From positions 1 to 64,000 of the forward strand of contig NZ_CAJGBN010000045.1 of the NCBI RefSeq assembly GCF_904426505.1: 64,000 nt of DNA, written 5' to 3'. Below are positions 1 to 12,050 of this stretch, piece by piece. The notes below the pieces were generated by a model. It saw only the letters and a list, made by a program, of their open reading frames with translations. It had not been told where the DNA came from and ran no database searches. This DNA comes from Rubrivivax sp. A210 (GTDB lineage Bacteria; Pseudomonadota; Gammaproteobacteria; Burkholderiales; Burkholderiaceae_C). The position numbers and the translations under genes were made by a program. How positions within the stretch are numbered: position 1 is the first letter of the stretch; each line of letters opens with the position of its first letter.

Positions 1-315
1 AAAGGGGCCGTGGCGAGGCGCAATTCGCGTCGCACACGCGCTGCAGCGTCGAAATCGGCCTCCTGGAAGGCTGTTCCTCAACCATCACTACTGGATGGCG
101 AAATTCGGAGCCTTGTTCAGCGTTGCCTTAAGGGCTTTCGGAAGTTGGCAATCAGCGGCCAGTGCGCGAAACCATGAGGCCACGGCAATGCACGCTTTCT
201 GCAGGGAGTGAGCTCATTCGGGCGTGTAGGAGTGAGGGCGCTCTCGATAACCCTGATCCCTGGATTACTATAGATAGGCCTCTGTGCAGAGGCAAGCCAA
301 AAGCAAGGGAGTCAA
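1..315. other. 5' edge region without a supported gene
   Basis: No frame here gives a product I recognise. Short open stretches running in from the window edge (for example plus frame 1, which stops at 175-177) have no start and no family resemblance. The last 70 bases are richer in A/T than the rest of the window and presumably hold the promoter of the lipoprotein gene that follows. A good ribosome binding site, AGGGAG, lies just before its ATG. Confidence 0.4.
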
Positions 316-921
316 ATGCTCGAATTCGTACGCGGTACGCATTTCAATGGCCGCCGCAATGGCCTGGCTGTCGCCACAATCCTGATATCGGCCCTGTTCG
401 CGGGTTGCACCACCGTCATGCCGCCGCCCATGGCCGGCGGCCAGAGCGCGAAGGCCTTGCGCGCGGCCCAGCTCGCGCCGGCCCAGGTGGGCAATTTCAA
501 GCTCGCGCCCGGCAAGCCTGCGGCGATGGACACCGAAATCGGCGGTGGCCTGCGCGGTGGCAACATCGCCGCGCCGAGTGGAAGTTTCTCGCGCCACCTC
601 AAGGAGACCTTGAGGGCCGAGCTGCAGTCGGCTGGCCTGCTCGACCCGCAATCGAAGCTCCTCATCGAGGGCCAGTTGACCGACAGCCAGGTCGACGCCG
701 CGATTGGCACGGGTACCGCCAGGTTGGCGGCGCGCTTCCAGGTTACGAGCGAGGGGAAGGTCTTGTTCGACAAGGAAGTGGCAGCGGAGGACTCCTGGGA
801 CTCCTCCTTCGTCGGTGCAATCGCGATTCCGCGCGCCATCGAACACTACGGCGGCATCTACCGCTTGCTGGTCGACAAGCTGCTGGGCGACGCCGACTTC
901 GTGAAGGCGCTGAAGCGCTGA
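316..921 (+). CDS. Hypothetical outer-membrane lipoprotein
   Basis: This is a 201-residue protein with a hydrophobic N-terminal segment (about residues 18-30) ending in a lipobox, LFAGC. It should be processed by signal peptidase II and lipidated on that cysteine. The body is a single small globular domain (about residues 55-201) with alternating strands and helices. In general shape it resembles the DUF4410-type lipoproteins, but I cannot assign it to a family with certainty. The ATG is preceded by AGGGAG at good spacing. The next gene is unrelated and 93 bases away, so it is probably transcribed alone. Its function is unknown. Confidence 0.7.
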   Translation: MLEFVRGTHFNGRRNGLAVATILISALFAGCTTVMPPPMAGGQSAKALRAAQLAPAQVGNFKLAPGKPAAMDTEIGGGLRGGNIAAPSGSFSRHLKETLRAELQSAGLLDPQSKLLIEGQLTDSQVDAAIGTGTARLAARFQVTSEGKVLFDKEVAAEDSWDSSFVGAIAIPRAIEHYGGIYRLLVDKLLGDADFVKALKR

Positions 922-1014
922 TTTCCGGGTCGCCCGGCCGCGCGGGCTGCGCGACCTAGAATCCGCCGGCCCTGGAGCCCCAGGGCCGTTCTCCACACTC
1001 ACCCCCAGGATCAC

Positions 1015-1464
1015 ATGGCAACTACGAAGAAGGTCGCGGCCAAGGCGCCGGCCAAGAAGGCGGCTGGCAAGACGGCTGTGAAGGCGGCCGTGAAGGCGGT
1101 CAAGGCCGCTGTGCCGGTCAAGGCCGCGGCCAAGGTTCCGGCCGCGCTGAAGCCGGTCAAGGAGGCCTTCAACAAGACGGGCCTGATCGCCCACCTGGCC
1201 GCCACGGCCGCGGTCGAGCCCAAGGCGGTCAAGGCCGTCGTTGCCGCGCTCGAAGCCACCATCCTGGCCTCGGTACACAAGAAGGGCCTCGGCGCCTTCA
1301 CGCTGCCGGGCCTGTTGAAGGTCAACGTCCTCAACGTGCCGGCCAAGAAGAAGCGTACCGGCATCGATCCCTTCACCAAGCAGGAACGCGTCTTCGCCGC
1401 CAAGCCCGCCACCGTGAAGATCAAGACCCGCGCGCTCAAGAAGCTCAAGGACGCGGCGCTCTGA
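1015..1464 (+). CDS. HU-family DNA-binding protein with Lys/Ala-rich N-terminal tail
   Basis: The C-terminal ~95 residues have the fold pattern of the HU/IHF family: an N-terminal helix pair (FNKTGLIAHLA), then GLGAFTLPGLLKVNV and the DNA-contacting arm region. The first ~50 residues are almost only Lys, Ala, Val and Pro in KKA/VKA repeats, like the tail of histone H1 or AlgP. HU itself is about 90 residues, so at 149 this is an extended nucleoid protein. The tail probably binds DNA nonspecifically and the HU part bends it. It appears to be a single-gene unit, 93 bases after the lipoprotein gene. Whether it acts in compaction or in specific regulation cannot be told from the sequence. Confidence 0.85.
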   Translation: MATTKKVAAKAPAKKAAGKTAVKAAVKAVKAAVPVKAAAKVPAALKPVKEAFNKTGLIAHLAATAAVEPKAVKAVVAALEATILASVHKKGLGAFTLPGLLKVNVLNVPAKKKRTGIDPFTKQERVFAAKPATVKIKTRALKKLKDAAL

Positions 1465-1490
1465 TCTGAGGCCGGCCCACGGTCGCCGGC

Positions 1491-1715
1491 GTGGCCGCTC
1501 TGCAGCCCGCCGGCCCGCGCAAGGCCCTGCCCGAGGTCAGCGCGCGCTGCACCGGCTGTGGCCGCTGCGTTGCGGTCTGCCCGCCGCGCGTGCTGTGGCT
1601 GGACCTCAAGGGCTGGAAGAAGACCGCCGTGCTCCACGACGCTGCCCACTGCACCGGCTGTGCGCAGTGCGTGCCGGCCTGCCCCTTCGACGCGATCACG
1701 ATGAAGCGCGCTTGA
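1491..1715 (+). CDS. 2[4Fe-4S] ferredoxin-like protein
   Basis: This 74-residue protein has two complete CxxCxxCxxxC clusters: Cys20, 23, 26, 30 and Cys54, 57, 60, 64, the last of each followed by Pro. This is the classic bacterial 2[4Fe-4S] ferredoxin arrangement for one-electron transfer in the cytoplasm. The start is a GTG at 1491, 27 bases after the HU gene stop. No enzyme partner lies next to it, so the electron donor and acceptor are unknown. It could be co-transcribed with the HU gene. Confidence 0.85.
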   Translation: MAALQPAGPRKALPEVSARCTGCGRCVAVCPPRVLWLDLKGWKKTAVLHDAAHCTGCAQCVPACPFDAITMKRA

Positions 1716-1761
1716 GGCGGGCCGCGCCGCCGCCCCTTGCCTTAGACTCCGCGGCTTTTTC

Positions 1762-2481
1762 GTGCGGAATCCGGTGATCGCAATGGGGCCAGGGGTGCGG
1801 GCTGCGGGCTTCAACAGTTCGGCCCTCGTGCGCCTGCTGGCGGCACTGGCGGCGCCCGAACTCGCGGGCGAAGCGAAGGGCGAGCCGTCGCTTGCCGAGA
1901 GCCTGGGCCGCTGGCTGGACTGGACCGGCGCCATCTCGCTGTCGGCCGCACTCAGCGTTGGTGCGGTGGCCGAGGCACCTGGCGCCACGGCCGCCGCAAA
2001 GGCCGCAGCAGCGGAATGCCTCCGGGCGCGGGCGCAGTTGGCCAAAGCCATTGCGGCCGAGCCGGTATTCGCGTCTGAGCCGGTGGCCGGCGCGGCCGAT
2101 TTCCTGCCCTACCGCCACGCTGTGATGGCGCAGCAGCGGGCGATGGAAACGCGCATCGCCGCGCTGCGCAGCCAGGTTCGCCGTGCCCTGGCCGGCCGCG
2201 GTGGCGCGCTGGCGCAGCTGGCGGCGCTGGACGGGGCGATGGACGAGGCCCTGGCTGCGCGCGAGCGCGCCCTGCTGGCCGGCGTGCCGGCGCTGCTGGA
2301 GAAGCGCTTTGCGCGCCTGCAGCGCGAGACGGACGATCCCGCGGGCACGGCCTGGCGGGCGGCCATCGGCCAGGAACTGAAGTCCGTGCTGCTGGCCGAG
2401 CTGGAGCTGCGCCTGCAGCCGGTGCTGGGCTTGCTGGAAGCCTTGGAACAAGAGGATATGAAGCAGCCCGCAAGGGCTTGA
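1762..2481 (+). CDS. DUF3348 family protein, first gene of a motor-like operon
   Basis: This is a 239-residue cytoplasmic protein, mainly alpha-helical and Ala/Arg/Glu-rich, with no signal peptide or membrane segment. Its N-terminal part (NSSALVRLLAALAAPEL and a GRWLDWTGAISLSAAL segment) matches what I know of DUF3348, a family found next to DUF802 genes in Burkholderiales. Residues 100-235 look like long amphipathic helices. It lies 10 bases upstream of the DUF802 gene and should be translated from the same mRNA. Its role is unknown. By context it is an accessory or regulatory subunit of the membrane complex encoded next. Confidence 0.75.
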   Translation: MRNPVIAMGPGVRAAGFNSSALVRLLAALAAPELAGEAKGEPSLAESLGRWLDWTGAISLSAALSVGAVAEAPGATAAAKAAAAECLRARAQLAKAIAAEPVFASEPVAGAADFLPYRHAVMAQQRAMETRIAALRSQVRRALAGRGGALAQLAALDGAMDEALAARERALLAGVPALLEKRFARLQRETDDPAGTAWRAAIGQELKSVLLAELELRLQPVLGLLEALEQEDMKQPARA

Positions 2482-2491
2482 TGACGTCGCC

Positions 2492-4312
2492 ATGAAAGCA
2501 AACCTTCCCCGACTGCTCTCGTGGGCTGCCTTCGCCGCCGGCCTGGCCGCCGTGGCCTGGGTGGGTGCGGGCTATCTCGACGGCCACCCGCTGGCCCTTT
2601 TGATGACGGCGCTGATCGCCGCCTTCTACCTTGCTGGCGCCGTCGAGCTGCACCGCTACCAGCGCGCCACCGCCACGCTGGCCGCGGCCCTGGCGGCCAT
2701 TCCCGGTGACCTGCAGCGGCTGGGTGACTGGCTGGCCTGCATCCACCCCACGCTGCAGAACCCGGTGCGCCTGCGCGTGGAAGGTGAGCGCGCTGCCCTG
2801 CCCGGCCCGGCGCTGACGCCTTATCTGGTGGGCCTGCTGGTGCTGCTGGGCATGCTGGGCACCTTCCTGGGCATGGTGGTCACGCTCAAGGGCACGGTGG
2901 CGGCGCTGGAAGGCAGCGCCGACGCCGGCGCCATTCGTGCCGCGCTGGCGGCGCCGGTGCGCGGCCTGGGTCTGGCCTTCGGCACCTCGGTGGCCGGGGT
3001 GGCCGCGTCGGCCATGCTGGGCCTGGTCTCGGCGCTGGTGCGGCGCGAACGGCAGCAGGCGGGGGCCGTGCTGGACAGCCGCATTGCGACCACGCTGCGC
3101 CGCTTTTCATCGGCCCACCAGCGCGAAGAGAGCTTCAAGACGCTGCAAGGCCAGGCCGGGCTGATGCCCGAGCTGGTGGACCGTCTGCAGGCCCTGATGG
3201 CGCAGATGGAGCGCCAGGGCCAGGTTGCGAATGAGCGCCTGCTGGCCAACCAGAAAGGCTTCCACCGCCACACCGAGGCCGTCTACGGCCGGCTGGCGGC
3301 TTCGGTCGAAGCTTCGCTGTCGGCCAGCCTGGCCGAGAGCGCGCGCCGCACCGGCGCGGCCGTGCAGCCGTTGGTCGAAGCCGCGCTGGCCGGCTTGGCG
3401 CGCGAGGCCGCCGCGGTGCAGGACCGCCTGCTCGCCGATGGCCGCGCCGCGCAGGAGGCCCAGGCCAGGGGCTTTGACGAGCGCGCCGCCGCGTTGCTGG
3501 CGGCGGTGGCACAGACCCAGGCCCAGGCCCAGGCCGATGCGGCGGCGCGCGAAGAGCAGCGGCTGGCGGCCTGGACGCGCTCGCTGGCTGACCTGGGCGC
3601 GGCCCTGCAGCGCGAATGGCAGCAGGCCGGTGAGCAAGGCCTGGCGCGCCAGCAGGCCATCTGCCAAGCGCTGGAAGTGAGCGCGCAACGGATTACCGAC
3701 CAGGCCGGCGCCCAGGCCCGCGCCACCGTGGCCGAGATCGAGCGCCTGGTGCAGGCCGCCGCCGAGGCGCCGCGCGCCGCCGCCGAGGTGATCGCCGCCC
3801 TGCGCGCGCAGCTCTCGGCCAGCCTGGTGCAGGACCAGGCCTTGCTGGAAGAGCGCGGTCGCGTGATGGCCTCGCTCGAAGGGTTGCTTGCGGCCGTCGA
3901 CCACGCGGCCACCGGCCAGCGCGCCGCGGTCGATGCGCTGCTGGCCAACTCGGCGGCGCTGCTGGAACGCCTGGGTGCGCGCTTCGGCGAGCAGGTCGAG
4001 GCCGGTTCGACACGCATCGTCGGCGTGGCCGCCCAGCTCACCGGCAGTGCCGCCGAGGTCGCCAGCCTGGGCGAGGCCTTCGGCCACGCGGTCCAACTGT
4101 TCAGCGCCTCCAACGACAAACTCACGGCCCACCTCGAGCGCATCGAGGTGGCGCTTGGAAAGTCGCTCTCGCGCAGCGACGAGCAGCTGGCCTATTACGT
4201 GGCGCAGGCGCGCGAGATCATCGATCTCAGCCTCACCTCGCAGAAGCAGATCGTCGAAGACCTGCAGCGCGTCGCCGGCCGCGCCGCCCTGGCCCCCGTC
4301 GAGCCCGCCTGA
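2492..4312 (+). CDS. DUF802 protein: MotA/TolQ/ExbB-like membrane subunit with long helical tail
   Basis: This 606-residue protein has four predicted membrane helices at about 8-28, 33-53, 109-131 and 157-183. Helices 3 and 4 carry the pattern of MotA/TolQ/ExbB proton-channel subunits: LLGMLGTFLGMV with Thr124, and GLAFGTSVAGVAASAMLG with Thr165, close to the conserved threonines of TolQ/ExbB. After residue 185 comes a ~420-residue Ala/Glu/Gln/Arg-rich region predicted to be almost wholly helical and coiled, projecting into the cytoplasm. ATG follows DUF3348 by 10 bases, and its stop overlaps the start of the OmpA-like gene (TGATG). The architecture resembles ZorA, but DUF802 is its own family and the function is not known to me. 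Confidence 0.85.
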   Translation: MKANLPRLLSWAAFAAGLAAVAWVGAGYLDGHPLALLMTALIAAFYLAGAVELHRYQRATATLAAALAAIPGDLQRLGDWLACIHPTLQNPVRLRVEGERAALPGPALTPYLVGLLVLLGMLGTFLGMVVTLKGTVAALEGSADAGAIRAALAAPVRGLGLAFGTSVAGVAASAMLGLVSALVRRERQQAGAVLDSRIATTLRRFSSAHQREESFKTLQGQAGLMPELVDRLQALMAQMERQGQVANERLLANQKGFHRHTEAVYGRLAASVEASLSASLAESARRTGAAVQPLVEAALAGLAREAAAVQDRLLADGRAAQEAQARGFDERAAALLAAVAQTQAQAQADAAAREEQRLAAWTRSLADLGAALQREWQQAGEQGLARQQAICQALEVSAQRITDQAGAQARATVAEIERLVQAAAEAPRAAAEVIAALRAQLSASLVQDQALLEERGRVMASLEGLLAAVDHAATGQRAAVDALLANSAALLERLGARFGEQVEAGSTRIVGVAAQLTGSAAEVASLGEAFGHAVQLFSASNDKLTAHLERIEVALGKSLSRSDEQLAYYVAQAREIIDLSLTSQKQIVEDLQRVAGRAALAPVEPA

Positions 4313-4956
4313 TGGACGAGCACGAGCACGCCATGGAACAGACGGCGCCGGTCTGGGCCGTCTTCGGCGACCTCATGGCCGGCCTGCTGGGCGCCTTCGT
4401 GCTGATGCTGGTGGCCGTGCTCGGCCTGCAGCTCGACCTGGCCACCCAGCTCGACACCGAGGTCAAGCGGCGCCAGGCCGAGGAACAGCGTCGCGTGGCG
4501 CTGGAGCAGGCGCTGGCCGGGCCGCTGGCCACGGGCCGGGTGACGCTGAACAACGGCCGCATCGGCATCAGCGGTAGCGTGCTGTTCGCGCAGAACTCCG
4601 ACCAGCTGCAGCCCGAGGGCCGCCAGCTGCTCAAGAGCCTGGCGGCGCCGCTGGCGGCCTATCTGCGCACGCGCGACGAACTGCTGATGGTGAGCGGCTT
4701 CACCGACGACCGCCAGCTGCGCGACCGCAACCGCGATTTCGCCGACAACTGGGAGTTGTCGGCCCAGCGCTCGCTGACGGTGATGCGGGCCCTGATCGCC
4801 GACGGCGTCCCCTCGTCCCTGGTCTTCGCCGCGGCCTTCGGGCCCGAGCAGCCAGTGGCCTCCAACGACGACGCCAGGGGCAGGGCGCTGAACCGCCGCG
4901 TCGAGATGGCGCCGGTGCCGCGCCCGGCCCGCGATGTCGACAAGCCCCGTGGCTGA
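4312..4956 (+). CDS. MotB/OmpA-like stator protein partnering the DUF802 subunit
   Basis: This 214-residue protein has a short cytoplasmic N-terminus, one membrane helix (about 14-37) and a periplasmic OmpA-type peptidoglycan-binding domain (about 85-205). The helix begins FGDLMAGLLGAF, placing Asp20 where MotB and ZorB have the ion-carrying aspartate. The OmpA domain shows SGFTDD, NWELSAQRS and GRALNRRVEM, the peptidoglycan-contact motifs of MotB-type proteins. The gene overlaps the DUF802 stop by one base and the DUF2894 start by 23 bases, so it is translationally coupled on both sides. The likely role is to anchor and gate the ion channel of the complex at the cell wall. Confidence 0.88.
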   Translation: MDEHEHAMEQTAPVWAVFGDLMAGLLGAFVLMLVAVLGLQLDLATQLDTEVKRRQAEEQRRVALEQALAGPLATGRVTLNNGRIGISGSVLFAQNSDQLQPEGRQLLKSLAAPLAAYLRTRDELLMVSGFTDDRQLRDRNRDFADNWELSAQRSLTVMRALIADGVPSSLVFAAAFGPEQPVASNDDARGRALNRRVEMAPVPRPARDVDKPRG

Positions 4957-5569
4957 AGTCGATGGGGACATGCGGCCGGGCGACGACGGGATCGCCGGCC
5001 TGATCGCGGCGCGGCGTGCCGACGGCGCCGCGCGCCGCGACCCGGTGCGCTTCCACTTCATCGAGGCCCTGGCGCGCCGCGCCGCGGCCCACGAGGGCGA
5101 GGCGCGGCGGGTCATCGACGCCAAGCTGCGCCAGGCGTTGCAGGCCCTGGGCGAGGCGCGGGCGCCTGAGCCGCCCGCGGCTGGACATCGGTGCCCCCCC
5201 AGCCCGCTGGCCGAACTGCTGCGCGATCACGCCGGCGCGGCGGCCCAGCCTGCGCCTGGCCCTGCTGCTTTCTCTGCCCCCGCCGCCCCGGTCGAGCTGA
5301 AGACGCTGCGCCTCTTCAGAAGCAGCTGGGCCCGGCTGGCTGTCGACCAGCGCCTGCACCAGGCCCGCGCCAAGGCGCCCGAGAACGCCGGCCCCCTGCA
5401 TTCGCAGGCCGTGGCACTGCGCGGCCTGGATGCGATGCGCGAGATTTCGCCGCAGTACCTGGGCCGCTTCGTGGCCCATCTCGATGCCCTGGCCTGGCTG
5501 GAGCGGGTCGGTGCCGGCAGCGTGGCGGTGCCGGCGACGCGCGGCGAAAAGCAGCCGCCACGCCGATAA
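4934..5569 (+). CDS. DUF2894 family protein, last gene of the motor-like operon
   Basis: This is a 211-residue soluble protein, Ala/Arg-rich and mostly helical. Its ATG lies 23 bases inside the preceding OmpA-like gene. The C-terminal half contains LFRSSWARLAVDQRLHQA and GRFVAHLDALAWLE, as I recall for DUF2894, a family described only from this gene neighbourhood. The middle (about residues 65-115) is Pro/Ala-rich and probably flexible. No catalytic motif is visible. Tight overlap with a membrane motor pair suggests a cytoplasmic partner of that complex. Its biochemical role is unknown. Confidence 0.75.
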   Translation: MSTSPVAEVDGDMRPGDDGIAGLIAARRADGAARRDPVRFHFIEALARRAAAHEGEARRVIDAKLRQALQALGEARAPEPPAAGHRCPPSPLAELLRDHAGAAAQPAPGPAAFSAPAAPVELKTLRLFRSSWARLAVDQRLHQARAKAPENAGPLHSQAVALRGLDAMREISPQYLGRFVAHLDALAWLERVGAGSVAVPATRGEKQPPRR

Positions 5570-5604
5570 TCGCGCCCCCATCCACCGCCCCAGGAGAGCC
5601 CGCC

Positions 5605-6291
5605 ATGCTGAAGTTCTACTACTCGCTCGCGCCCAACCCGATGAAGGTGGCCCTCTTCCTCGAAGAGGCCGGCCTGCCCTACGAGGCGATACCGGTGGAC
5701 ACGCGCAAGGGCGAGCAGCATGCGGCGCCCTTCCTGGCGCTGAACCCGAATGCCAAGGTGCCGGTGATCGTCGACGGCGAGGCCACGGTCTTCGACAGCA
5801 GCGCCATCCTGCTCTACCTGGCCGAGAAGACCGGCCAGTTCCTGCCCGAGAACACGCCCAAGGCGCGTGGCGAGCTGCTGTCGTGGCTGATGTTCACCGC
5901 CTCGGGCATCGGGCCCTTCACCGGCCAGTGCGTGCACTTCAGGCACTACGCGCCCGAGACCGTGCCCTATGCGCAGAACCGCTACGACTTCGAGGCCTGG
6001 CGCCATTGGCGGCTGCTGGATGCCCACCTGGCCACGCGCAGCCACATGCTGGGCGAGCGCTACACCCTGGTCGACATGGCGGTCTGGGGCTGGGCGCGGG
6101 CCCTGCCTTTTGCGCTGGGCGAGGCGGCCTGGGGCGAGCTGCCGCACCTGAAGCGTTTGTTCGACGCCATCAACGCGCGCCCGGCCGCCCAGCGCGTGGC
6201 CGCGCTGCGGGAGCGCCACGCCTTCAAGGCCGAGATGGACGACGAGGCGCGGCGCGCGATGTTCCCCCATCTCGATCACAGCAAGGGCTGA
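5605..6291 (+). CDS. Glutathione S-transferase family protein
   Basis: This is a 228-residue cytoplasmic protein with an N-terminal thioredoxin-fold domain (about 1-82) and a helical C-terminal domain. The N-terminus shows SLAPNPMKVALFLEEAGLPYE, the cis-Pro region KVPVIVD, and the glutathione-binding Ser pair in VFDSSAILLYL. Length and layout fit the bacterial GST families related to YfcG/YghU. ATG 5605 was chosen over upstream in-frame codons because AGGAGAG lies 8 bases before it and homology starts there. The substrate cannot be predicted. It stands alone between the motor-like operon and the hydroxyacyl-CoA dehydrogenase gene. Confidence 0.88.
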   Translation: MLKFYYSLAPNPMKVALFLEEAGLPYEAIPVDTRKGEQHAAPFLALNPNAKVPVIVDGEATVFDSSAILLYLAEKTGQFLPENTPKARGELLSWLMFTASGIGPFTGQCVHFRHYAPETVPYAQNRYDFEAWRHWRLLDAHLATRSHMLGERYTLVDMAVWGWARALPFALGEAAWGELPHLKRLFDAINARPAAQRVAALRERHAFKAEMDDEARRAMFPHLDHSKG

Positions 6292-6364
6292 GCCGGGCGC
6301 GCCGGAGAGGGGCCGCGGGCAGGGGCAAAATCAGCCCCTGATTCAACGAACGGTTCCCCTCCAC

Positions 6365-7216
6365 ATGGCAAACACCACACTCGGCGTCGTCGGCGCCGGC
6401 ACCATGGGCAACGGCATCGCGCAGGTCTGCGCCCTGGCCGGCCTGAACATCGCGATGATCGATGTCAACGAGGCCGCCGTGCAGCGCGGCCTGGCCACCA
6501 TCTCCAAGAGCCTGGACCGGCTGGTCTCGAAAGAGAAGATCAGCGCCGCCGACAAGGCCGCGGCCCTGGCCCGCATCAGCGGCGGCACTGACTACGAGGC
6601 GCTGCGCGGGCGCGATCTCATCATCGAGGCCGCGACCGAGAACCTCGAGTTGAAGCTGCGCATCCTGCGCCAGATCGACGGCCTGGCCGGCGAGAACACC
6701 GTGGTGGCTTCCAACACCTCGTCGATCTCCATCACCCAGCTGGCCGCGGTGATGAGCCGCCCGGCGCGCTTCATCGGCATGCACTTCTTCAACCCGGTGC
6801 CGATGATGGCGCTGGTGGAACTGATCCGCGGCCTGCAGACCTCGGACGAGACGCACGCCGCCGCGCTGGCCTTCGTGCAGGCCATCGGCAAGTCGCCCAT
6901 CACCGCGAAGAACAGCCCGGGCTTCGTCGTCAACCGCATCCTCTGCCCGATGATCAACGAGGCCATCTTCGCGCTGCAGGACGGCCTGGCCAGCGCCGAG
7001 GACATCGACACCGGCATGCGCCTGGGCTGCAACCAGCCCATAGGCCCGCTGGCCCTGGCCGACATGATCGGCCTGGACACCATGCTGGCCGTGATGCAGG
7101 TCTTCTACGAGGGTTTCAACGACACCAAGTACCGGCCCGCGCCCCTGCTCAAGGAGATGGTGGCCGCCGGCCGCCTGGGTCGCAAGAGCGGCCAGGGCTT
7201 CTACTCTTACGCCTGA
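6365..7216 (+). CDS. hbd: 3-hydroxybutyryl-CoA dehydrogenase
   Basis: This 283-residue NAD(P)-dependent enzyme oxidises (S)-3-hydroxybutyryl-CoA to acetoacetyl-CoA, or runs in reverse, in fatty-acid or polyhydroxyalkanoate metabolism. The Rossmann motif GAGTMGNGIAQ is at residues 8-20. The family signature around the catalytic His is GMHFFNPVPMMALVE, and the C-terminal domain has the usual NRILCPMINEA and GPLALADMIGLD. The length is normal for the short Hbd/PaaH family. There is no operon partner on the same strand. Its neighbour on the minus strand converges directly, with no gap between the two stop codons. Confidence 0.93.
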   Translation: MANTTLGVVGAGTMGNGIAQVCALAGLNIAMIDVNEAAVQRGLATISKSLDRLVSKEKISAADKAAALARISGGTDYEALRGRDLIIEAATENLELKLRILRQIDGLAGENTVVASNTSSISITQLAAVMSRPARFIGMHFFNPVPMMALVELIRGLQTSDETHAAALAFVQAIGKSPITAKNSPGFVVNRILCPMINEAIFALQDGLASAEDIDTGMRLGCNQPIGPLALADMIGLDTMLAVMQVFYEGFNDTKYRPAPLLKEMVAAGRLGRKSGQGFYSYA

Positions 7217-7918
7217 TCAGGCCACCGCGCCGCCCGCAAACAGGCGGGCGGCGAGTTCGGATTCGCGCTGCGAGACGGTGAGCAGGAAATCATCAGCGCC
7301 GCCCATGGCGCGGAAGGTCTCGAAGCCGGCGACGATGAACTCGTGCAGCGTGCCCAGGCCGGCCAGCTGGGCCGCACCACGCATCATGCGCAGGCTCTGG
7401 CGCAGCAGCGGCTTGCGCGTGAAGCCGTCGAGGGCGCGGCCCACGCCCAGCATCAGCGCGATCTGCTGCTGGCGCTCGGCCGGCTGGCCCACGGCGCGCC
7501 AGGCCGCGGCATAGGCCACGTGGTCGGGCGGGTTGGCCGTGAAGGCGCCTGAGGCCAGCGTGGCCTGGGCCATCAAGCTGTCCAGTTGTTCCGACAGTGC
7601 GTGCAGGCTGGCCACCGAGGCCACCGTGGCCACCACGTCGGCGCTGAACAAGCGCACCAGGGCCGGCACGATGCGTGCGAACTGGTCGTCGCGGCGCGTG
7701 AAATCGGCCGGTCCGTAGAGATCGTTGAGGAAGAAGCGCGCCGCCGCGGCATAGCGCGGGCTGGCCAGCAGGTCGGCATAGCTGCGCTCGAAGCGCGCGT
7801 GCTGGTAGGCCTTGATGGCGGCCACGCGCTCGCCCAGTGCCGGCTGCGCCGCGCGCCGTGTGCGTTCGGCCGTTACCTCGCACAGGCTTTGCAGGATGGC
7901 CGCGCCGCGAGGGTTCAT
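7217..7918 (-). CDS. Conserved hypothetical protein (FFLNDLYG family)
   Basis: This is a helical protein of about 233 residues with a strongly patterned segment, ASPRYAAAARFFLNDLYG followed by RRDDQFARIVPALVRLF, which I recognise as a widespread uncharacterised proteobacterial family. No catalytic motif, signal peptide or membrane helix is visible. ATG 7918 is preferred. An in-frame TTG at 7963 would add a Pro/Ala stretch without family resemblance. The gene ends base-to-base against hbd and is divergent from the oxidoreductase module at 8037. The function is unknown. Confidence 0.75.
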   Translation of the reverse strand: MNPRGAAILQSLCEVTAERTRRAAQPALGERVAAIKAYQHARFERSYADLLASPRYAAAARFFLNDLYGPADFTRRDDQFARIVPALVRLFSADVVATVASVASLHALSEQLDSLMAQATLASGAFTANPPDHVAYAAAWRAVGQPAERQQQIALMLGVGRALDGFTRKPLLRQSLRMMRGAAQLAGLGTLHEFIVAGFETFRAMGGADDFLLTVSQRESELAARLFAGGAVA

Positions 7919-8036
7919 CGCGGGTGCCGCGGCAGCCGGCGGCAGGGCGGGGAGGGAAAGCAAGGCAGGGGAGGCATGGTGCGGCTAGGTCTGCTTCCCT
8001 AAGGAAGCCGGCCCCAATGATGCAACACTGCCGGCC

Positions 8037-8546
8037 ATGAAACGACGCACCCTGCTCACTGTCGGCGTGGCGGGCGCGGCCTTGCTCACGCTGGTGGGTG
8101 GATCGCTGGCGCTGCTGCGGCCGGCGCGCCGCGAGGGCCGCCTGACCGAGACCGGCCGCACCGTCTTCACCGCGCTGGCGCCGGCCGTGCTCGATGCCAT
8201 GCTGCCGCCGCCCGGCGCAGCGCGCGAGGCGGCGGTGGCGGCGCTGCTCATGCGCATCGAGGCCTCGCTGGCCGGCATGCCGCCGGCGCTGCAGGCCGAG
8301 GTCGACGAGCTGATCATGATCATTGCCAGCGCACCCGGACGTCTTGCCCTGGTCGGCCTGCGCCCGGCCTGGAGCGAGGCCACGGCGGCCGAGGTCGGCG
8401 CCGCGCTGCAGGGCCTGCGTGAATCGGGCCTGGCCGTGCGCCAGCAGGTCTTTCATGCGCTGCGAGATCTCACCAATGCCGCGTACTTCGCCGACGCCGC
8501 CACCTGGTCGGCCATCGGCTACCCGGGCCAGCGCGCCGTGGCCTGA
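8037..8546 (+). CDS. Twin-arginine-type small subunit of a GMC oxidoreductase (gluconate dehydrogenase subunit 3-like)
   Basis: This 169-residue protein begins with MKRRTLLTVG and a hydrophobic stretch, consistent with a Tat-type or membrane-anchored signal. Residues 38-165 are helical (FTALAPAVLDAML, and a pattern of paired helices), as in the small subunit that accompanies membrane gluconate-type dehydrogenases. It is 8 bases upstream of the GMC flavoprotein and clearly belongs with it. Known relatives help to export and assemble the flavoprotein, since the large subunit itself lacks a signal. Homology is inferred from layout more than from strong motifs. Confidence 0.7.
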   Translation: MKRRTLLTVGVAGAALLTLVGGSLALLRPARREGRLTETGRTVFTALAPAVLDAMLPPPGAAREAAVAALLMRIEASLAGMPPALQAEVDELIMIIASAPGRLALVGLRPAWSEATAAEVGAALQGLRESGLAVRQQVFHALRDLTNAAYFADAATWSAIGYPGQRAVA

Positions 8547-8554
8547 ATGAAGCG

Positions 8555-10168
8555 ATGAGTACCTTGCCCGACCCCATCCAGCAAGGCCTGGCGCGCGGCT
8601 GGAAGGTATTCGGCGGCGGCCACGCCCCGGCCGCCGACACGCTGGACTGCGATGTCGCCATCGTCGGCAGCGGTGCCGGCGCCGGCATCACGGCCGAGTT
8701 GCTGGCGCGCGCCGGCCTCAAGGTCGTGCTGGTCGAGGAAGGGCCCTTGCGCAGCAGCAGCCATTTCCGCCAGCTCGAATCCGACGCCTACCCCCAGCTC
8801 TACCAGGAAAGCGCCAGCCGCAAGACCGCCGACAAGGCCATCGCCATCCTGCAGGGCCGCTGCGTCGGCGGCTCGACCACGGTCAACTGGACCAGTTCCT
8901 TCCGCACGCCCTCGGACACGCTGCAGTTCTGGCGCGAGCGCTTCGCCCTGCCCGAACTGACCGACGACTTCCTGTCGCCCTGGTTCCTGCAAGCCGAGCG
9001 GCGCCTGTCCATCGGCCCCTGGCTGGTGGCGCCCAATGTCAACAACGACCTGCTGCGCCTGGGCGCGGCGCGCCTGGGCATACCGGCCAGCGCGATACCG
9101 CGCAACGTCAAGGGCTGCTGGAACCTGGGTTCCTGCGGCCTGGGCTGCCCGACCAATGCCAAGCAGTCGATGCTGCTCACCACCATCCCGGCGGCGCTGG
9201 ACCTGGGTGCCACGCTGCTGGTGCAGACGCGCGCCGAGCGGCTGGAATTTGATGGCGACAAGGCCGCGGCCCTGGTCTGCCGCCCGGTGACGATCAACAG
9301 CGCGCCGGCAGCGGGCGCGGCCACGAAGCTGCGCGCCCGCCACTACGTGATCGCCGGCGGCGCCATCAACACGCCGGGGTTGCTGCTGCGCTCCAAGGCG
9401 CCCGACCCGCACGGGCGCCTGGGCCAGCGCAGCTTCCTGCACCCGGTGGTGGTGTCGACGGCGCTGTTCGACCAGGCCATCGAAGCCTGGGACGGCGCGC
9501 CCCAGACCATGTACACCGACCACTTCCTGGGCGTGGCGCCGATAGACGGGCCCATGGGCTACAAGCTCGAGGCGCCGCCGCTCTACCCCATGATCTCGGC
9601 CATCGCCTTGCCAGGTTTCGGCGCCGAGCAGGCGGCGGCCTTGCGCGCCTTTCCCCACACCCAGGCGGTGCTGGCGCTGCTGCGCGACGGCTTCCACCCC
9701 GAATCGCCCGGTGGCCGCGTGCTGCTGGGCGGCGACGGCACGCCGGTGCTGGACTACAAGCTCAACGCCTTCACGATGGAGGGCGCGCGGCGGGCGCTGC
9801 TGAGCATGGCCGAGATCCAGTTTGCCGCCGGCGCGCGCAGCGTGACACCGGTGCACCAGGCGGCGCGGCCCAGCACCAGCTGGGCCCAGGCGAAGCAGGC
9901 CATTTCGGAGCTGGCGATGGAGCCCTATCTGACGCGCGTGCTGAGCGCCCACCAGATGGGCGGCTGCGGTATGGCCGGCAAGCCCGAGCTGGGCGTGGTG
10001 CGGCCCGACGGCCGCCACTGGCAACTGGCCAATGTCTCGGTACACGACGGCTCGTTCTTCCCCACCAGCATCGGCGCCAATCCGCAGTTGTCGATCTACG
10101 GCCTCGTCAACATGCTGGCGACGCGGCTGGCGCGCACGCTGAGCGGGCGCGAAGTGCGGCTGGTCTGA
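8555..10168 (+). CDS. GMC-family FAD oxidoreductase
   Basis: This 537-residue flavoprotein carries the N-terminal ADP-binding motif VAIVGSGAGAGITAELLARAG (about 35-55) with the acidic end VLVEEG. A Cys-containing loop CGLGCPTNAK lies near residue 195, and the C-terminal GMC signature shows HQMGGCGM and VHDGSFFPTSIGANPQ. These fit choline/glucose/alcohol-type oxidoreductases that oxidise an alcohol group. The exact substrate is not visible. No signal peptide is present, so export would have to depend on the Tat-type partner encoded just upstream. An alpha/beta hydrolase gene follows by 4 bases, suggesting that an ester or lipid is hydrolysed and the product oxidised. Confidence 0.88.
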   Translation: MSTLPDPIQQGLARGWKVFGGGHAPAADTLDCDVAIVGSGAGAGITAELLARAGLKVVLVEEGPLRSSSHFRQLESDAYPQLYQESASRKTADKAIAILQGRCVGGSTTVNWTSSFRTPSDTLQFWRERFALPELTDDFLSPWFLQAERRLSIGPWLVAPNVNNDLLRLGAARLGIPASAIPRNVKGCWNLGSCGLGCPTNAKQSMLLTTIPAALDLGATLLVQTRAERLEFDGDKAAALVCRPVTINSAPAAGAATKLRARHYVIAGGAINTPGLLLRSKAPDPHGRLGQRSFLHPVVVSTALFDQAIEAWDGAPQTMYTDHFLGVAPIDGPMGYKLEAPPLYPMISAIALPGFGAEQAAALRAFPHTQAVLALLRDGFHPESPGGRVLLGGDGTPVLDYKLNAFTMEGARRALLSMAEIQFAAGARSVTPVHQAARPSTSWAQAKQAISELAMEPYLTRVLSAHQMGGCGMAGKPELGVVRPDGRHWQLANVSVHDGSFFPTSIGANPQLSIYGLVNMLATRLARTLSGREVRLV

Positions 10169-10172
10169 ACCC

Positions 10173-11069
10173 ATGCTGGCGCGCCTGCAGCAGTTCACTA
10201 CCCTGGGCATCCTGGCCTTGGCGGCGCTGTGGGGCGGCTGGGCCTGGCGGGCTGGCCATCCGGCCTGGGCCGTGGCCGGCGTGCTGGCGCTGCTGTGCGG
10301 CCATGCCTTGGTGCTGGGCCTGGAATTCGTGTTGTTGCGCTGGGTCCACGGCGACGACCCCGCGCCGCGCGCCGGCCTCAAGCTGCTGCTGCGCGCCTGG
10401 TGGGGCGAGGTGCTGGCGGCGCCGCGCGTCTTCTGCTGGCGTCAGCCCTTTCGCAGCCGGCGCTGGCCCGATGTGTTGCCGGCCCTTGCGCGCGGACAGC
10501 GCGGCGTGTTGCTGGTGCATGGCTTCGTCTGCAACCGCGGGCTCTGGAACCCCTGGCTTGAGAAGCTGCATGCCGCGGGCACGCCAGTGGTGGCTGTCAA
10601 CCTCGAGCCGGTGTTCGGCGCCATCGACGATTACGTCGCGCGCATCGAAGACGGCGTGCGGGCGCTGGAGCAGGCCACGGGCCTGGCACCGGTGGTCGTC
10701 GGCCACAGCATGGGCGGGCTGGCCCTGCGCCGCTGGTGGGCCGAGCTGGGCGGCGATGGCCGCGTGTACCACGCCATCACGATTGGCACGCCCCACCACG
10801 GCACCTGGCTGGCGCGCTGGGCGCTCTCGGCCAATGCGCGCCAGATGCGCATCGGCTCGCCCTGGCTGCAGGCGTTGGAGGCGCGCGAGCCGCACGGCCG
10901 CGCCGCCAAGCTCAGCTGCTTCTACAGCCACTGTGACAACATCGTCTTCCCGCCCAGCACGGCCACTCTGGCCGGCGCCGACAACCGCCACCTCGTCGGC
11001 GTGGCCCATGTCCACATGGCCGACCGGCCCGAGCCCTGGCAGGAACTGCAGCGCTGGTTGCGGCGCTGA
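10173..11069 (+). CDS. Membrane-anchored alpha/beta hydrolase (lipase/esterase-like)
   Basis: This is a 298-residue protein. Residues 8-55 form two hydrophobic helices and should anchor it in the inner membrane. The hydrolase core starts at GVLLVHGFVCNRGLWNPWL (oxyanion-hole HG). The nucleophile elbow is GHSMGG, then IGTPHHGTWLA, an acidic residue in FYSHCDNIVFPP and a late His in GVAHVHM complete the likely triad. This resembles triacylglycerol lipases and PGAP1-like esterases. It is 4 bases after the GMC oxidoreductase and forms the last gene of that three-gene unit. The natural substrate is unknown. Confidence 0.82.
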   Translation: MLARLQQFTTLGILALAALWGGWAWRAGHPAWAVAGVLALLCGHALVLGLEFVLLRWVHGDDPAPRAGLKLLLRAWWGEVLAAPRVFCWRQPFRSRRWPDVLPALARGQRGVLLVHGFVCNRGLWNPWLEKLHAAGTPVVAVNLEPVFGAIDDYVARIEDGVRALEQATGLAPVVVGHSMGGLALRRWWAELGGDGRVYHAITIGTPHHGTWLARWALSANARQMRIGSPWLQALEAREPHGRAAKLSCFYSHCDNIVFPPSTATLAGADNRHLVGVAHVHMADRPEPWQELQRWLRR

Positions 11070-11077
11070 GCGCCCGC

Positions 11078-11890
11078 TCAGGCTGCCGTGGTGCGGACGA
11101 TCTGCGACGGCGTCGGCGCCGGCCAGCCGGCCTCGCGAGCGGTGCGGACGATGGCCTCGTTGGTGTCGAAGTAGACCTGCCAGTAGTGCTCGTTGCCGCA
11201 GTAGGGGCGCACCGCGATCACCGGGCCGACCAGGTTCATGTCGAGCAGCGAAACCTCGGGCGCCGGGCTCGTGGCAACGTGGGGGATGGCAGCCACGGCG
11301 GTCTTGAGCCGCGCGATGGCGTCCAGCGGGTCGACGCTGCCGGCGAGTTGTGCCGTGCGCTCGACGCGCCGCACCGGCCGTGCCGAGTAATTGGAGATGG
11401 TTTCGCCGAAGACCCGGGTATTGCCCACCAGGGTGAGCACGTTGTCGGGCGTGATGATGGTGGTGCCGAACAGACCCAGTTCGTGTACGGTGCCGACGAG
11501 GCCGCCCACCTGCACGAAATCGCCCACCTTGAACGGACGCAGCACCAGCATGAAGGCGCCGGCGGCGAAATTGCCCAGCATGCCGCTCCAGGCCGCGCCG
11601 ATGGCCACACCGGCACCCGCCAGCATGGCGGCAAACGAGGTCGTCTGGATGCCGAAATAGCCCAGGATGCCCAGGACCAGCGCGATGTTCAGCGCGATGG
11701 CAACGATGGAGCCGAGGTACTTGGTCAGCGTCGGGTCGACGTGGTTGCGGCTCATGGCCGCCTGCATCAGGGCCACCACCTTGCCGCTGAGCCAGCGGCC
11801 GATGATCCAGAAGGCGATGGCGGCCAGCACCTTGAAGGCCAGTTCGATGACCGTGGTGCTGAGAAAGGTCTGGAGCGTCTGCATATCCAT
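11078..11890 (-). CDS. mscS: Small-conductance mechanosensitive channel
   Basis: This 270-residue channel releases solutes under hypo-osmotic shock. Three N-terminal membrane helices (about 13-35, 60-82, 88-112) precede the cytoplasmic cage. The pore helix shows the Gly/Ala-rich pattern GAGVAIGAAWSGMLGNFAAG, followed by LRPFKVGDFV, the start of the beta domain, as in E. coli MscS (286 residues). It converges on the alpha/beta hydrolase gene with an 8-base gap. It is separated by 160 bases from the divergent small gene at 12051. Confidence 0.93.
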   Translation of the reverse strand: MDMQTLQTFLSTTVIELAFKVLAAIAFWIIGRWLSGKVVALMQAAMSRNHVDPTLTKYLGSIVAIALNIALVLGILGYFGIQTTSFAAMLAGAGVAIGAAWSGMLGNFAAGAFMLVLRPFKVGDFVQVGGLVGTVHELGLFGTTIITPDNVLTLVGNTRVFGETISNYSARPVRRVERTAQLAGSVDPLDAIARLKTAVAAIPHVATSPAPEVSLLDMNLVGPVIAVRPYCGNEHYWQVYFDTNEAIVRTAREAGWPAPTPSQIVRTTAA

Positions 11891-12050
11891 GTTGAGCGGA
11901 GTCCCGTGGCCGGGTGAAGTCCGGCCTGCGGCGCGGATTCTGTACCAGCAGGTGTGAATCCGTCACATCCCCGGCGCGGCCTGCGTCGCAGCGCCCGCGG
12001 GCCTGGCTTCCTAAAGTGCGTCCATACCCCGCCGCCCCAAGGAGCCCGCC

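What the first reader, a model, noticed from the sequence alone, without database searches (positions are those of the whole stretch)
1762..5569. Four-gene operon for an uncharacterised ion-driven membrane motor (DUF3348-DUF802-MotB/OmpA-DUF2894)
Seen: a DUF802 protein with four helices, the last two carrying MotA/TolQ/ExbB-type GT-containing patterns (Thr124, Thr165), and a ~420-residue cytoplasmic coiled tail. Directly coupled is a MotB-like protein with an Asp20 in its only helix and a full OmpA peptidoglycan-binding domain. Two soluble helical partners flank the pair, with overlaps of 1 and 23 bases. Known: a MotA-like subunit with a long tail plus a MotB-like anchor is the layout of ZorAB, the motor of the Zorya defence system. 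Inference: this is a ZorAB-like machine with different effectors, possibly serving defence, envelope sensing or transport. I know of no experimental role for DUF802, DUF3348 or DUF2894.
Basis: partly seen in the sequence, partly recalled or inferred. Interest (0 to 1): 0.82.

Follow-up and report, generated by a model that had tools for sequence, protein, structure and literature searches.

The report
A known phage-defence motor: Zorya III
These four genes are a copy of Zorya type III, a phage-defence system reported in 2021 in which an ion-driven membrane motor works with two small helper proteins of unknown mechanism; the find is real, but the system is already named and tested.

Summary
The four genes at 1762-5569 are real and in the order described. 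They are not an uncharacterised motor: all four match PADLOC's Zorya type III models (ZorA3 E=1.6e-257, ZorB3 7.8e-111, DUF3348 6.3e-68, DUF2894 2.1e-56). That system was defined in 2021, and a Stenotrophomonas copy protected E. coli from phage (PMC8565338, passages). DUF802 is a 53-position repeat not found in this ZorA, though 12 of 15 ZorA proteins scanned have it. Key residues hold: ZorB Asp20 in 94 of 94 rows, ZorA Thr124 in 91 of 91 and Thr165 in 92 of 92 rows with a residue there. DUF3348 is patchy in the genus (23 of 60); DUF3348, ZorB and DUF2894 go together (67 of 69 genomes). The output step stays open: I saw no nuclease-like domain in the partners and no constant fifth gene. ZorA is a rod of variable length (399-1027 residues) with a near-invariant tip; this copy is the shortest of 90 measured.

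The parts
1762..2481 (+). DUF3348 protein, 239 aa (called ZorG in PADLOC-DB, ZorF in the text of the 2021 paper): soluble, all-helical partner
   Evidence: Pfam PF11828 E=9.2e-57; PADLOC ZorG3 E=6.3e-68; AlphaFold model of 8 helices, mean pLDDT 84.7, pTM 0.79
2492..4312 (+). ZorA type III, 606 aa: MotA/ExbB/TolQ-like motor subunit with a cytoplasmic rod
   Evidence: PADLOC ZorA3 E=1.6e-257; four hydrophobic stretches; Thr124 and Thr165 invariant wherever a residue is present
4175..4231 (+). Near-invariant tip near the ZorA C-terminus (residues 562-580, SDEQLAYYVAQAREIIDLS)
   Evidence: In 90 of 95 ZorA rows the motif ends 20-39 residues from the C-terminus while the spacer before it varies from 399 to 1027 residues. 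Of the other 5 rows, L064, L076 and L080 lack the membrane part, L112 is masked with N, and the best-scoring frame of L097 ends without the tip (another frame or a broken gene, not followed up)
4312..4956 (+). ZorB type III, 214 aa: one membrane helix with Asp20, then an OmpA peptidoglycan-binding domain
   Evidence: PADLOC ZorB3 E=7.8e-111; OmpA E=2.3e-16; Asp20, Asp132, Arg153, Arg196 in 94 of 94 rows; Asp20 column aligned with an Asp of chains 8vvn_B and 8qyd_F
4934..5569 (+). DUF2894 protein, 211 aa (called ZorF in PADLOC-DB, ZorG in the text of the 2021 paper): soluble helical partner
   Evidence: Pfam PF11445 E=2.2e-45; PADLOC ZorF3 E=2.1e-56; AlphaFold model helical, mean pLDDT 78.3 but pTM only 0.44

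Best explanation
This is a Zorya type III anti-phage system. Inferred mechanism: five ZorA and two ZorB form an ion-driven rotary motor in the inner membrane. When a phage disturbs the envelope, the ZorB OmpA domains grip peptidoglycan, ions flow past Asp20 and the ring of ZorA threonines, and ZorA with its cytoplasmic rod turns. The conserved tip of the rod is the docking site through which that motion is passed to the two helical partners (DUF3348 and DUF2894), which switch on the response. Shown by others: a relative protects E. coli from phage; type I and II complexes are 5:2 motors that need ion flow, peptidoglycan binding and the tail. Shown here: membership by profile, conservation of the key residues, a module that is nearly always found whole, a variable rod with a fixed tip. 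Inferred: activation, and everything about the step after rotation. The confidence given is for 'Zorya type III defence system', not for the tip-docking step.
For: PADLOC type III models match all four proteins. Payne et al. 2021 define the system and report phage protection for the S. nitritireducens copy (PMC8565338, passages). Asp20 in 94 of 94 rows, Thr124 in 91 of 91 and Thr165 in 92 of 92 rows with a residue. The ZorB N-terminal profile finds 8vvn_B best (E=6.3e-7; 8VVN is type I ZorAB), then 8qyd_F (E=0.0011; ZorAB by my recall, the tool names it only 'Membrane protein'), then flagellar PomB at 0.046 or weaker; the ZorA core profile finds 8vvn_C (E=0.00083). DUF3348, ZorB and DUF2894 occur together in 67 of 69 genomes that have any of them, out of 250 searched; the two exceptions are 65% and 78% complete assemblies. 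DUF3348 is patchy within the genus, 23 of 60 genomes, 16 of 36 among good ones. Copies of Rhodanobacteraceae (Dyella, Rudaea) lie among betaproteobacterial ones in a quick tree, two changes forced by starred branches.
Against: No direct test of this copy. The tested relative's sequence was not fetched, so its distance to this copy is unknown. No other defence gene among 50 further called genes of the window (PADLOC, E up to 1e-10), and among 130 of 149 nearest neighbours of the named relatives each of eight PADLOC models matched only 1 or 2, so the setting is not a defence island. G+C of the operon (0.72-0.75) is only a little above the 0.69-0.72 downstream, so composition does not mark it as newly acquired. 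In B. [quoted passage not shown] The tree tool itself warns that more than one change is no proof of transfer, and Rudaea L064 is from a metagenome bin.
Confidence: 0.93

Rival explanations
1. A housekeeping or envelope-maintenance motor (Tol/Exb-like) that only happens to protect when overexpressed in E. coli.
For: No defence-island setting; G+C close to the surroundings; the published test used plasmid expression in E. coli (PMC8565338); NCBIfam still carries a 'hypothetical protein' model for ZorB, PRK09040 (365 bits).
Against: DUF3348 is patchy within the genus, 23 of 60 genomes, and rare in the order: 18 of 300 genomes have a match, of which 16, this genome included, have it beside ZorA and the 2 weak ones lack the operon. 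The four genes sit in different neighbourhoods. The best flagellar model for ZorB is MotD with 83 bits against 367 bits for ZorB3, and the only NCBIfam hit of ZorA is an anti-phage ZorA model, weak at 2.2e-4.
Confidence: 0.06
2. The output of type III is DNA cleavage after all: DUF3348 or DUF2894 is an unrecognised nuclease, or they recruit a host nuclease. (A sub-question of the best explanation, not an alternative to it.)
For: Types I and II both act on DNA, through ZorC/ZorD or ZorE (PMC12904381 and PMC11890865, passages).
Against: Both partners are predicted all-helical, no PDB match at E 0.001 or better, only DUF models in Pfam, no catalytic-looking invariant set in my reading. This does not exclude recruitment of a host nuclease, and the DUF2894 model is of low reliability.
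Confidence: 0.35
3. The output is membrane leakage: the unplugged motor itself depolarises the cell and aborts infection, with the two partners as regulators. (Also a sub-question of the best explanation.)
For: A system with a motor and no evident enzyme would need no other effector; Payne et al. propose that the two partners regulate ZorAB and cite the earlier proton-channel idea (PMC8565338, passage).
Against: In types I and II tail, ion flow and peptidoglycan binding are all needed and ZorE is the type II effector (PMC11890865, abstract and passages); a conserved tip on the rod suggests a docking task rather than a mere pore.
Confidence: 0.3

Closest known systems
Zorya type III (ZorA, ZorB, ZorF, ZorG; Payne et al. 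2021)
   Same: All four genes, their order and families; PADLOC models match each.
   Different: This ZorA has the shortest rod of the 90 measured (399 residues from Thr165 to the tip, range 399-1027) and no detectable DUF802 repeat; 3 of 15 ZorA proteins scanned, this one included, lack it.
Zorya types I and II
   Same: ZorAB motor core; PADLOC ZorA1, ZorA2, ZorB1 and ZorB2 models also hit, far more weakly; a solved type I ZorAB (8VVN) is the best match of the membrane parts.
   Different: No ZorC, ZorD or ZorE hit in the window; DUF3348 and DUF2894 instead; the ZorA tip profile finds no solved chain at E up to 1.
Flagellar MotAB/PomAB stators
   Same: OmpA peptidoglycan-binding domain and an Asp in the single helix.
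   Different: Long cytoplasmic rod and operon partners; in the flagellar chains the best matched stretch is the OmpA part only (for example 53-203 in 8bri_F), whereas 8vvn_B and 8qyd_F are matched from 8-9 to 200-204.

Membership tests
Zorya type III | ZorA: MotA/ExbB/TolQ-like membrane core with long cytoplasmic tail | tested here: met
   Four ZorA3 models, E=1.6e-257 to 2.2e-235; four hydrophobic stretches
Zorya type III | ZorB: one membrane helix with a conserved Asp, OmpA domain | tested here: met
   ZorB3 E=7.8e-111; Asp20 in 94 of 94 rows
Zorya type III | DUF3348 protein in the operon | tested here: met
   E=9.2e-57 in Pfam, 6.3e-68 in PADLOC
Zorya type III | DUF2894 protein in the operon | tested here: met
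   E=2.2e-45 in Pfam, 2.1e-56 in PADLOC
Zorya type III | The two partners flank the ZorAB pair | tested here: met
   DUF3348-ZorA-ZorB-DUF2894; 75 of 80 named loci hold all four in this order (in L107 only a 123-aa DUF3348 frame), the other 5 are cut by contig ends
Zorya type III | Protects against phage | not testable with these tools
   Shown for a relative in E. coli (PMC8565338, passages), not for this copy
Zorya type III | ZorA5ZorB2 ion-driven motor | not testable with these tools
   No multimer prediction available; inferred from types I and II (PMC11890865)
DUF802 (PF05650) | At least one 53-position DUF802 repeat above cut-off | tested here: not met
   No hit at E 0.1 in this protein, none in the genome at E 0.001 (no control rang); 12 of 15 scanned ZorA proteins have it
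Zorya type I | ZorC and ZorD in the operon | tested here: not met
   No PADLOC hit at E 1e-10 among 50 further called genes of the window; the genome outside the window was not searched for them, and the contig starts at window base 1
Zorya type II | ZorE in the operon | tested here: not met
   As for type I

The most novel reading that the evidence does not exclude
Zorya type III works without a nuclease of its own: the motor turns a rod whose length is free to vary but whose tip is fixed, and the tip drives two purely helical adaptors whose output is something other than cutting DNA (membrane leakage, clamping of incoming DNA, or recruitment of a host factor). That would make it a mechanical defence relay unlike types I and II.
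Probability: 0.45. Interest if true: 0.6.

Novelty: already known. Interest (0 to 1): 0.3.

Why it matters
As a find it adds one more copy of a described defence system. What has value is a sharper question: types I and II end in a DNA-acting enzyme, while in type III I could see none in its four genes and no constant gene beside them. The fixed tip on a rod of variable length is a specific place to test how motor rotation is read out, and this copy, with the shortest rod measured, is a convenient minimal version.

Tried and rejected
Rejected: 'uncharacterised'. Rejected: DUF802 as the name of this ZorA. Rejected: a constant fifth gene. In 95 loci, looking at up to four called genes on each side, the most recurrent neighbour cluster is a protein that I read as a LysR-type regulator (from its sequence, no family search), in 21 of 95 loci at changing positions. 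Rejected: kinship of the two partners with each other (hhalign probability 0.3%).

Led nowhere: fold searches of the DUF3348 model (Foldseek best E=0.18; VIA best Z 8.9 to an MxB stalk, under the level of about 13 that the tool itself gives for helical bundles) and of the low-confidence DUF2894 model (best E=2.0). No solved chain matches the DUF3348 profile at E up to 1; the DUF2894 profile has a weak match to PscE (E=0.0042) that I do not trust. PHROGs gave nothing for three of the proteins and four unnamed families for ZorB, all over its OmpA part. Empty-site search: close relatives of both the HU-like gene and the GST gene that flank the operon here were found together in 6 other genomes of the genus (G487, G546, G570, G577, G584, G593); in 5 they are on different contigs and in 1 about 120 kb apart, so no empty site could be shown. 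No relative of the ZorA core in 50,697 phage records; in viral contigs 34 pattern matches, none confirmed as ZorB; 27 of 72,556 plasmid records have a ZorA core relative (15 listed).

Of 149 nearest-neighbour proteins of the 80 named loci, 130 were scanned (19, mostly the longest, left out to fit the 50,000-residue limit); mad2 matched 2 members, and mad3, mad8 and five PDC-M05A models 1 member each. No random-gene control was run for that rate. Genes there and in the window were called with a simple codon-usage script, not a standard gene finder. In one search some frames picked for ZorA or ZorB start too far upstream or are overlapping wrong frames; lengths in that table are not used. L035 and L036 (weak DUF3348 hits) hold no Zor genes within their 18 kb and were dropped. 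The pattern counts were replaced by the alignment counts, made on 94 rows (this copy and 93 loci; L024 and L055, cut by contig ends, drop out; L029 and L047 are identical), all gathered with profiles of this family.

Full report
What is there. Four genes on the + strand, 1762-2481, 2492-4312, 4312-4956 and 4934-5569, with overlaps of 1 and 23 bases between the last three. Pfam names the first DUF3348, the third OmpA and the fourth DUF2894; the second gets only a below-cut-off match. Hydropathy gives four membrane stretches in the second protein, one strong stretch in the third and none above the threshold in the others.

What it is. PADLOC's Zorya type III models match all four: ZorA3 1.6e-257, ZorB3 7.8e-111, the DUF3348 protein 6.3e-68, the DUF2894 protein 2.1e-56. 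Zorya type III was named in 2021 from 6,401 loci, and the copy of Stenotrophomonas nitritireducens DSM 12575, expressed in E. coli BL21-AI, lowered plaquing of at least one phage and protected liquid cultures against PVP-SE1 at MOI under 0.1 (PMC8565338, passages read). The names of the two partners conflict: the text of that paper and PMC11890865 call DUF3348 ZorF and DUF2894 ZorG, while PADLOC-DB labels them the other way round. I therefore use the DUF names. NCBIfam has no model for either partner, a 'hypothetical protein' model for ZorB (PRK09040, 365 bits) and only a weak anti-phage ZorA hit for ZorA (2.2e-4).

The DUF802 label. PF05650 is a model of 53 positions. It is not found in this ZorA (E up to 0.1) nor in its genome (E up to 0.001; that call notes that no control genome rang either). 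It is found in 12 of the 15 ZorA proteins scanned, this one among the 3 without.

Residues of the motor. In an alignment of 94 rows (this copy and 93 loci, two of them identical) ZorB Asp20 is present in 94, ZorA Thr124 in 91 of 91 and Thr165 in 92 of 92 rows with a residue at that place; the gaps are L064, L076 and, for Thr124, L080, which lack that part of ZorA. OmpA-domain residues Asp132, Arg153 and Arg196 are in 94 of 94. The rows were gathered with profiles of this family, so this shows constancy within type III and does not test kinship. Kinship with other Zorya types comes from profile searches: the first 80 residues of ZorB find 8vvn_B at 6.3e-7 and 8qyd_F at 0.0011 before flagellar PomB chains at 0.046 or weaker, with the Asp columns aligned; the ZorA core finds 8vvn_C at 0.00083 and three chance hits above 0.7. 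8VVN is type I ZorAB of Shewanella (PMC11890865); that 8QYD is a ZorAB complex is my recall. Full-length ZorB, dominated by its OmpA domain, scores higher against MotB and OmpA chains. For types I and II, published work reports a 5:2 complex with the Asp against a ring of Ser/Thr, and need for ion flow, peptidoglycan binding and the tail (PMC11890865, abstract and passages).

Rod and tip. In 90 of 95 ZorA rows the distance from Thr165 to the motif around SDEQLAYYVAQARE runs from 399 to 1027 residues (median 533.5), while the motif ends 20-39 residues from the C-terminus. The window's copy has the smallest distance of the 90. Of the 5 rows not measured, three lack the membrane part, one is masked with N, and in one (L097) the best-scoring frame ends without the tip, either another frame or a broken gene. 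A profile of the last 100 residues finds no solved chain at E up to 1. I take the tip as a docking site; that is inference.

A module that is nearly always whole, patchily held. Of 250 genomes of the same family, 67 have DUF3348 over the cut-off, 69 DUF2894 over the cut-off and 68 a strong ZorB (E 2.2e-27 or better); 67 of the 69 genomes with any of them have all three, in 65 on one contig within about 4 kb (start to start) and in 2 on two contigs; the two partial ones are assemblies of 65% and 78% completeness. ZorA was not searched separately there. Left out of that count: G489 (weak DUF3348), G440 (weak DUF2894) and 8 genomes whose only ZorB match is 3.1e-7 or weaker, which may be other motors or Zorya types. 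In the genus 23 of 60 genomes have DUF3348, or 16 of 36 good ones; their full operons were not checked. In the order 18 of 300 had a DUF3348 match; in 16 of them, this genome included, it lies beside ZorA (one, G237, cut by its contig end before ZorB) and in 2 weak ones no operon was found. Of 80 named loci 75 hold all four genes and 5 are cut by contig ends; in L107 the DUF3348 frame is only 123 aa. In a quick tree copies from Dyella and Rudaea (Rhodanobacteraceae, Gammaproteobacteria) lie among betaproteobacterial copies, which points to transfer but does not prove it; the window's own place is unsure because of its long branch.

Setting. The window's other 50 called genes gave no PADLOC hit at E up to 1e-10; the 25 of 66 Pfam families that one search shows are metabolic enzymes, a glycyl-tRNA synthetase, transporters and two domains of unknown function. 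There is no tRNA in the window. G+C is 0.72-0.75 across the operon, against 0.69-0.72 downstream and 0.64-0.71 upstream (bases 1-12000). The window starts at base 1 of its contig, so only 1.8 kb upstream could be seen. Among 130 of 149 nearest neighbours of named relatives, each of eight PADLOC models matched 1 or 2. So this is a lone module, not part of a defence island.

The partners. The DUF3348 model is a confident set of eight helices (pLDDT 84.7, pTM 0.79) with no significant PDB match. The DUF2894 model is helical but its overall shape is not reliable (pTM 0.44), again without a match. Neither is a known enzyme family, and their invariant residues do not look to me like a catalytic set. 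This is weak evidence that type III lacks a nuclease of its own.

Literature. Searches for Zorya type III by several spellings found five papers in the held library, and for the three DUF names three. By the passages I read none shows a mechanism for type III; Payne et al. only propose that the partners regulate ZorAB. PMC13064858 was seen in the listing only. The Nature 2025 Zorya paper is not held.

Verdict. A real and correctly described operon, rightly guessed to be ZorAB-like, that is already known as Zorya type III. What remains open is how it acts after the motor turns.

Noticed in passing
window 1480-1714 (+): A short stretch just upstream of the operon reads, by eye, as a 4Fe-4S ferredoxin-like protein with two CxxCxxC patterns, beside an HU-like DNA-binding gene at 1015-1461 with a Lys/Ala-rich N-terminal part (Pfam Bac_DNA_binding E=2.4e-8).
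   Followed up: partly
PADLOC-DB versus PMC8565338: The names ZorF and ZorG are swapped between the database models and the text of the paper that coined them.
   Followed up: yes
G500:C10:22370-22873 (family survey): The DUF2894 match of this relative has one TGA stop inside, so this copy of the operon may be decaying.
   Followed up: no
L097, ZorA region 5509-8952: In this Achromobacter locus the best-scoring ZorA frame ends about 1 kb before ZorB and without the conserved tip: another frame or a broken gene.
   Followed up: no
Plasmid collection: 27 of 72,556 plasmid records carry a ZorA type III relative; the 15 listed are replicons of 0.7-3.5 Mb from Variovorax, Paraburkholderia, Caballeronia, Burkholderia and Azoarcus.
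   Followed up: partly
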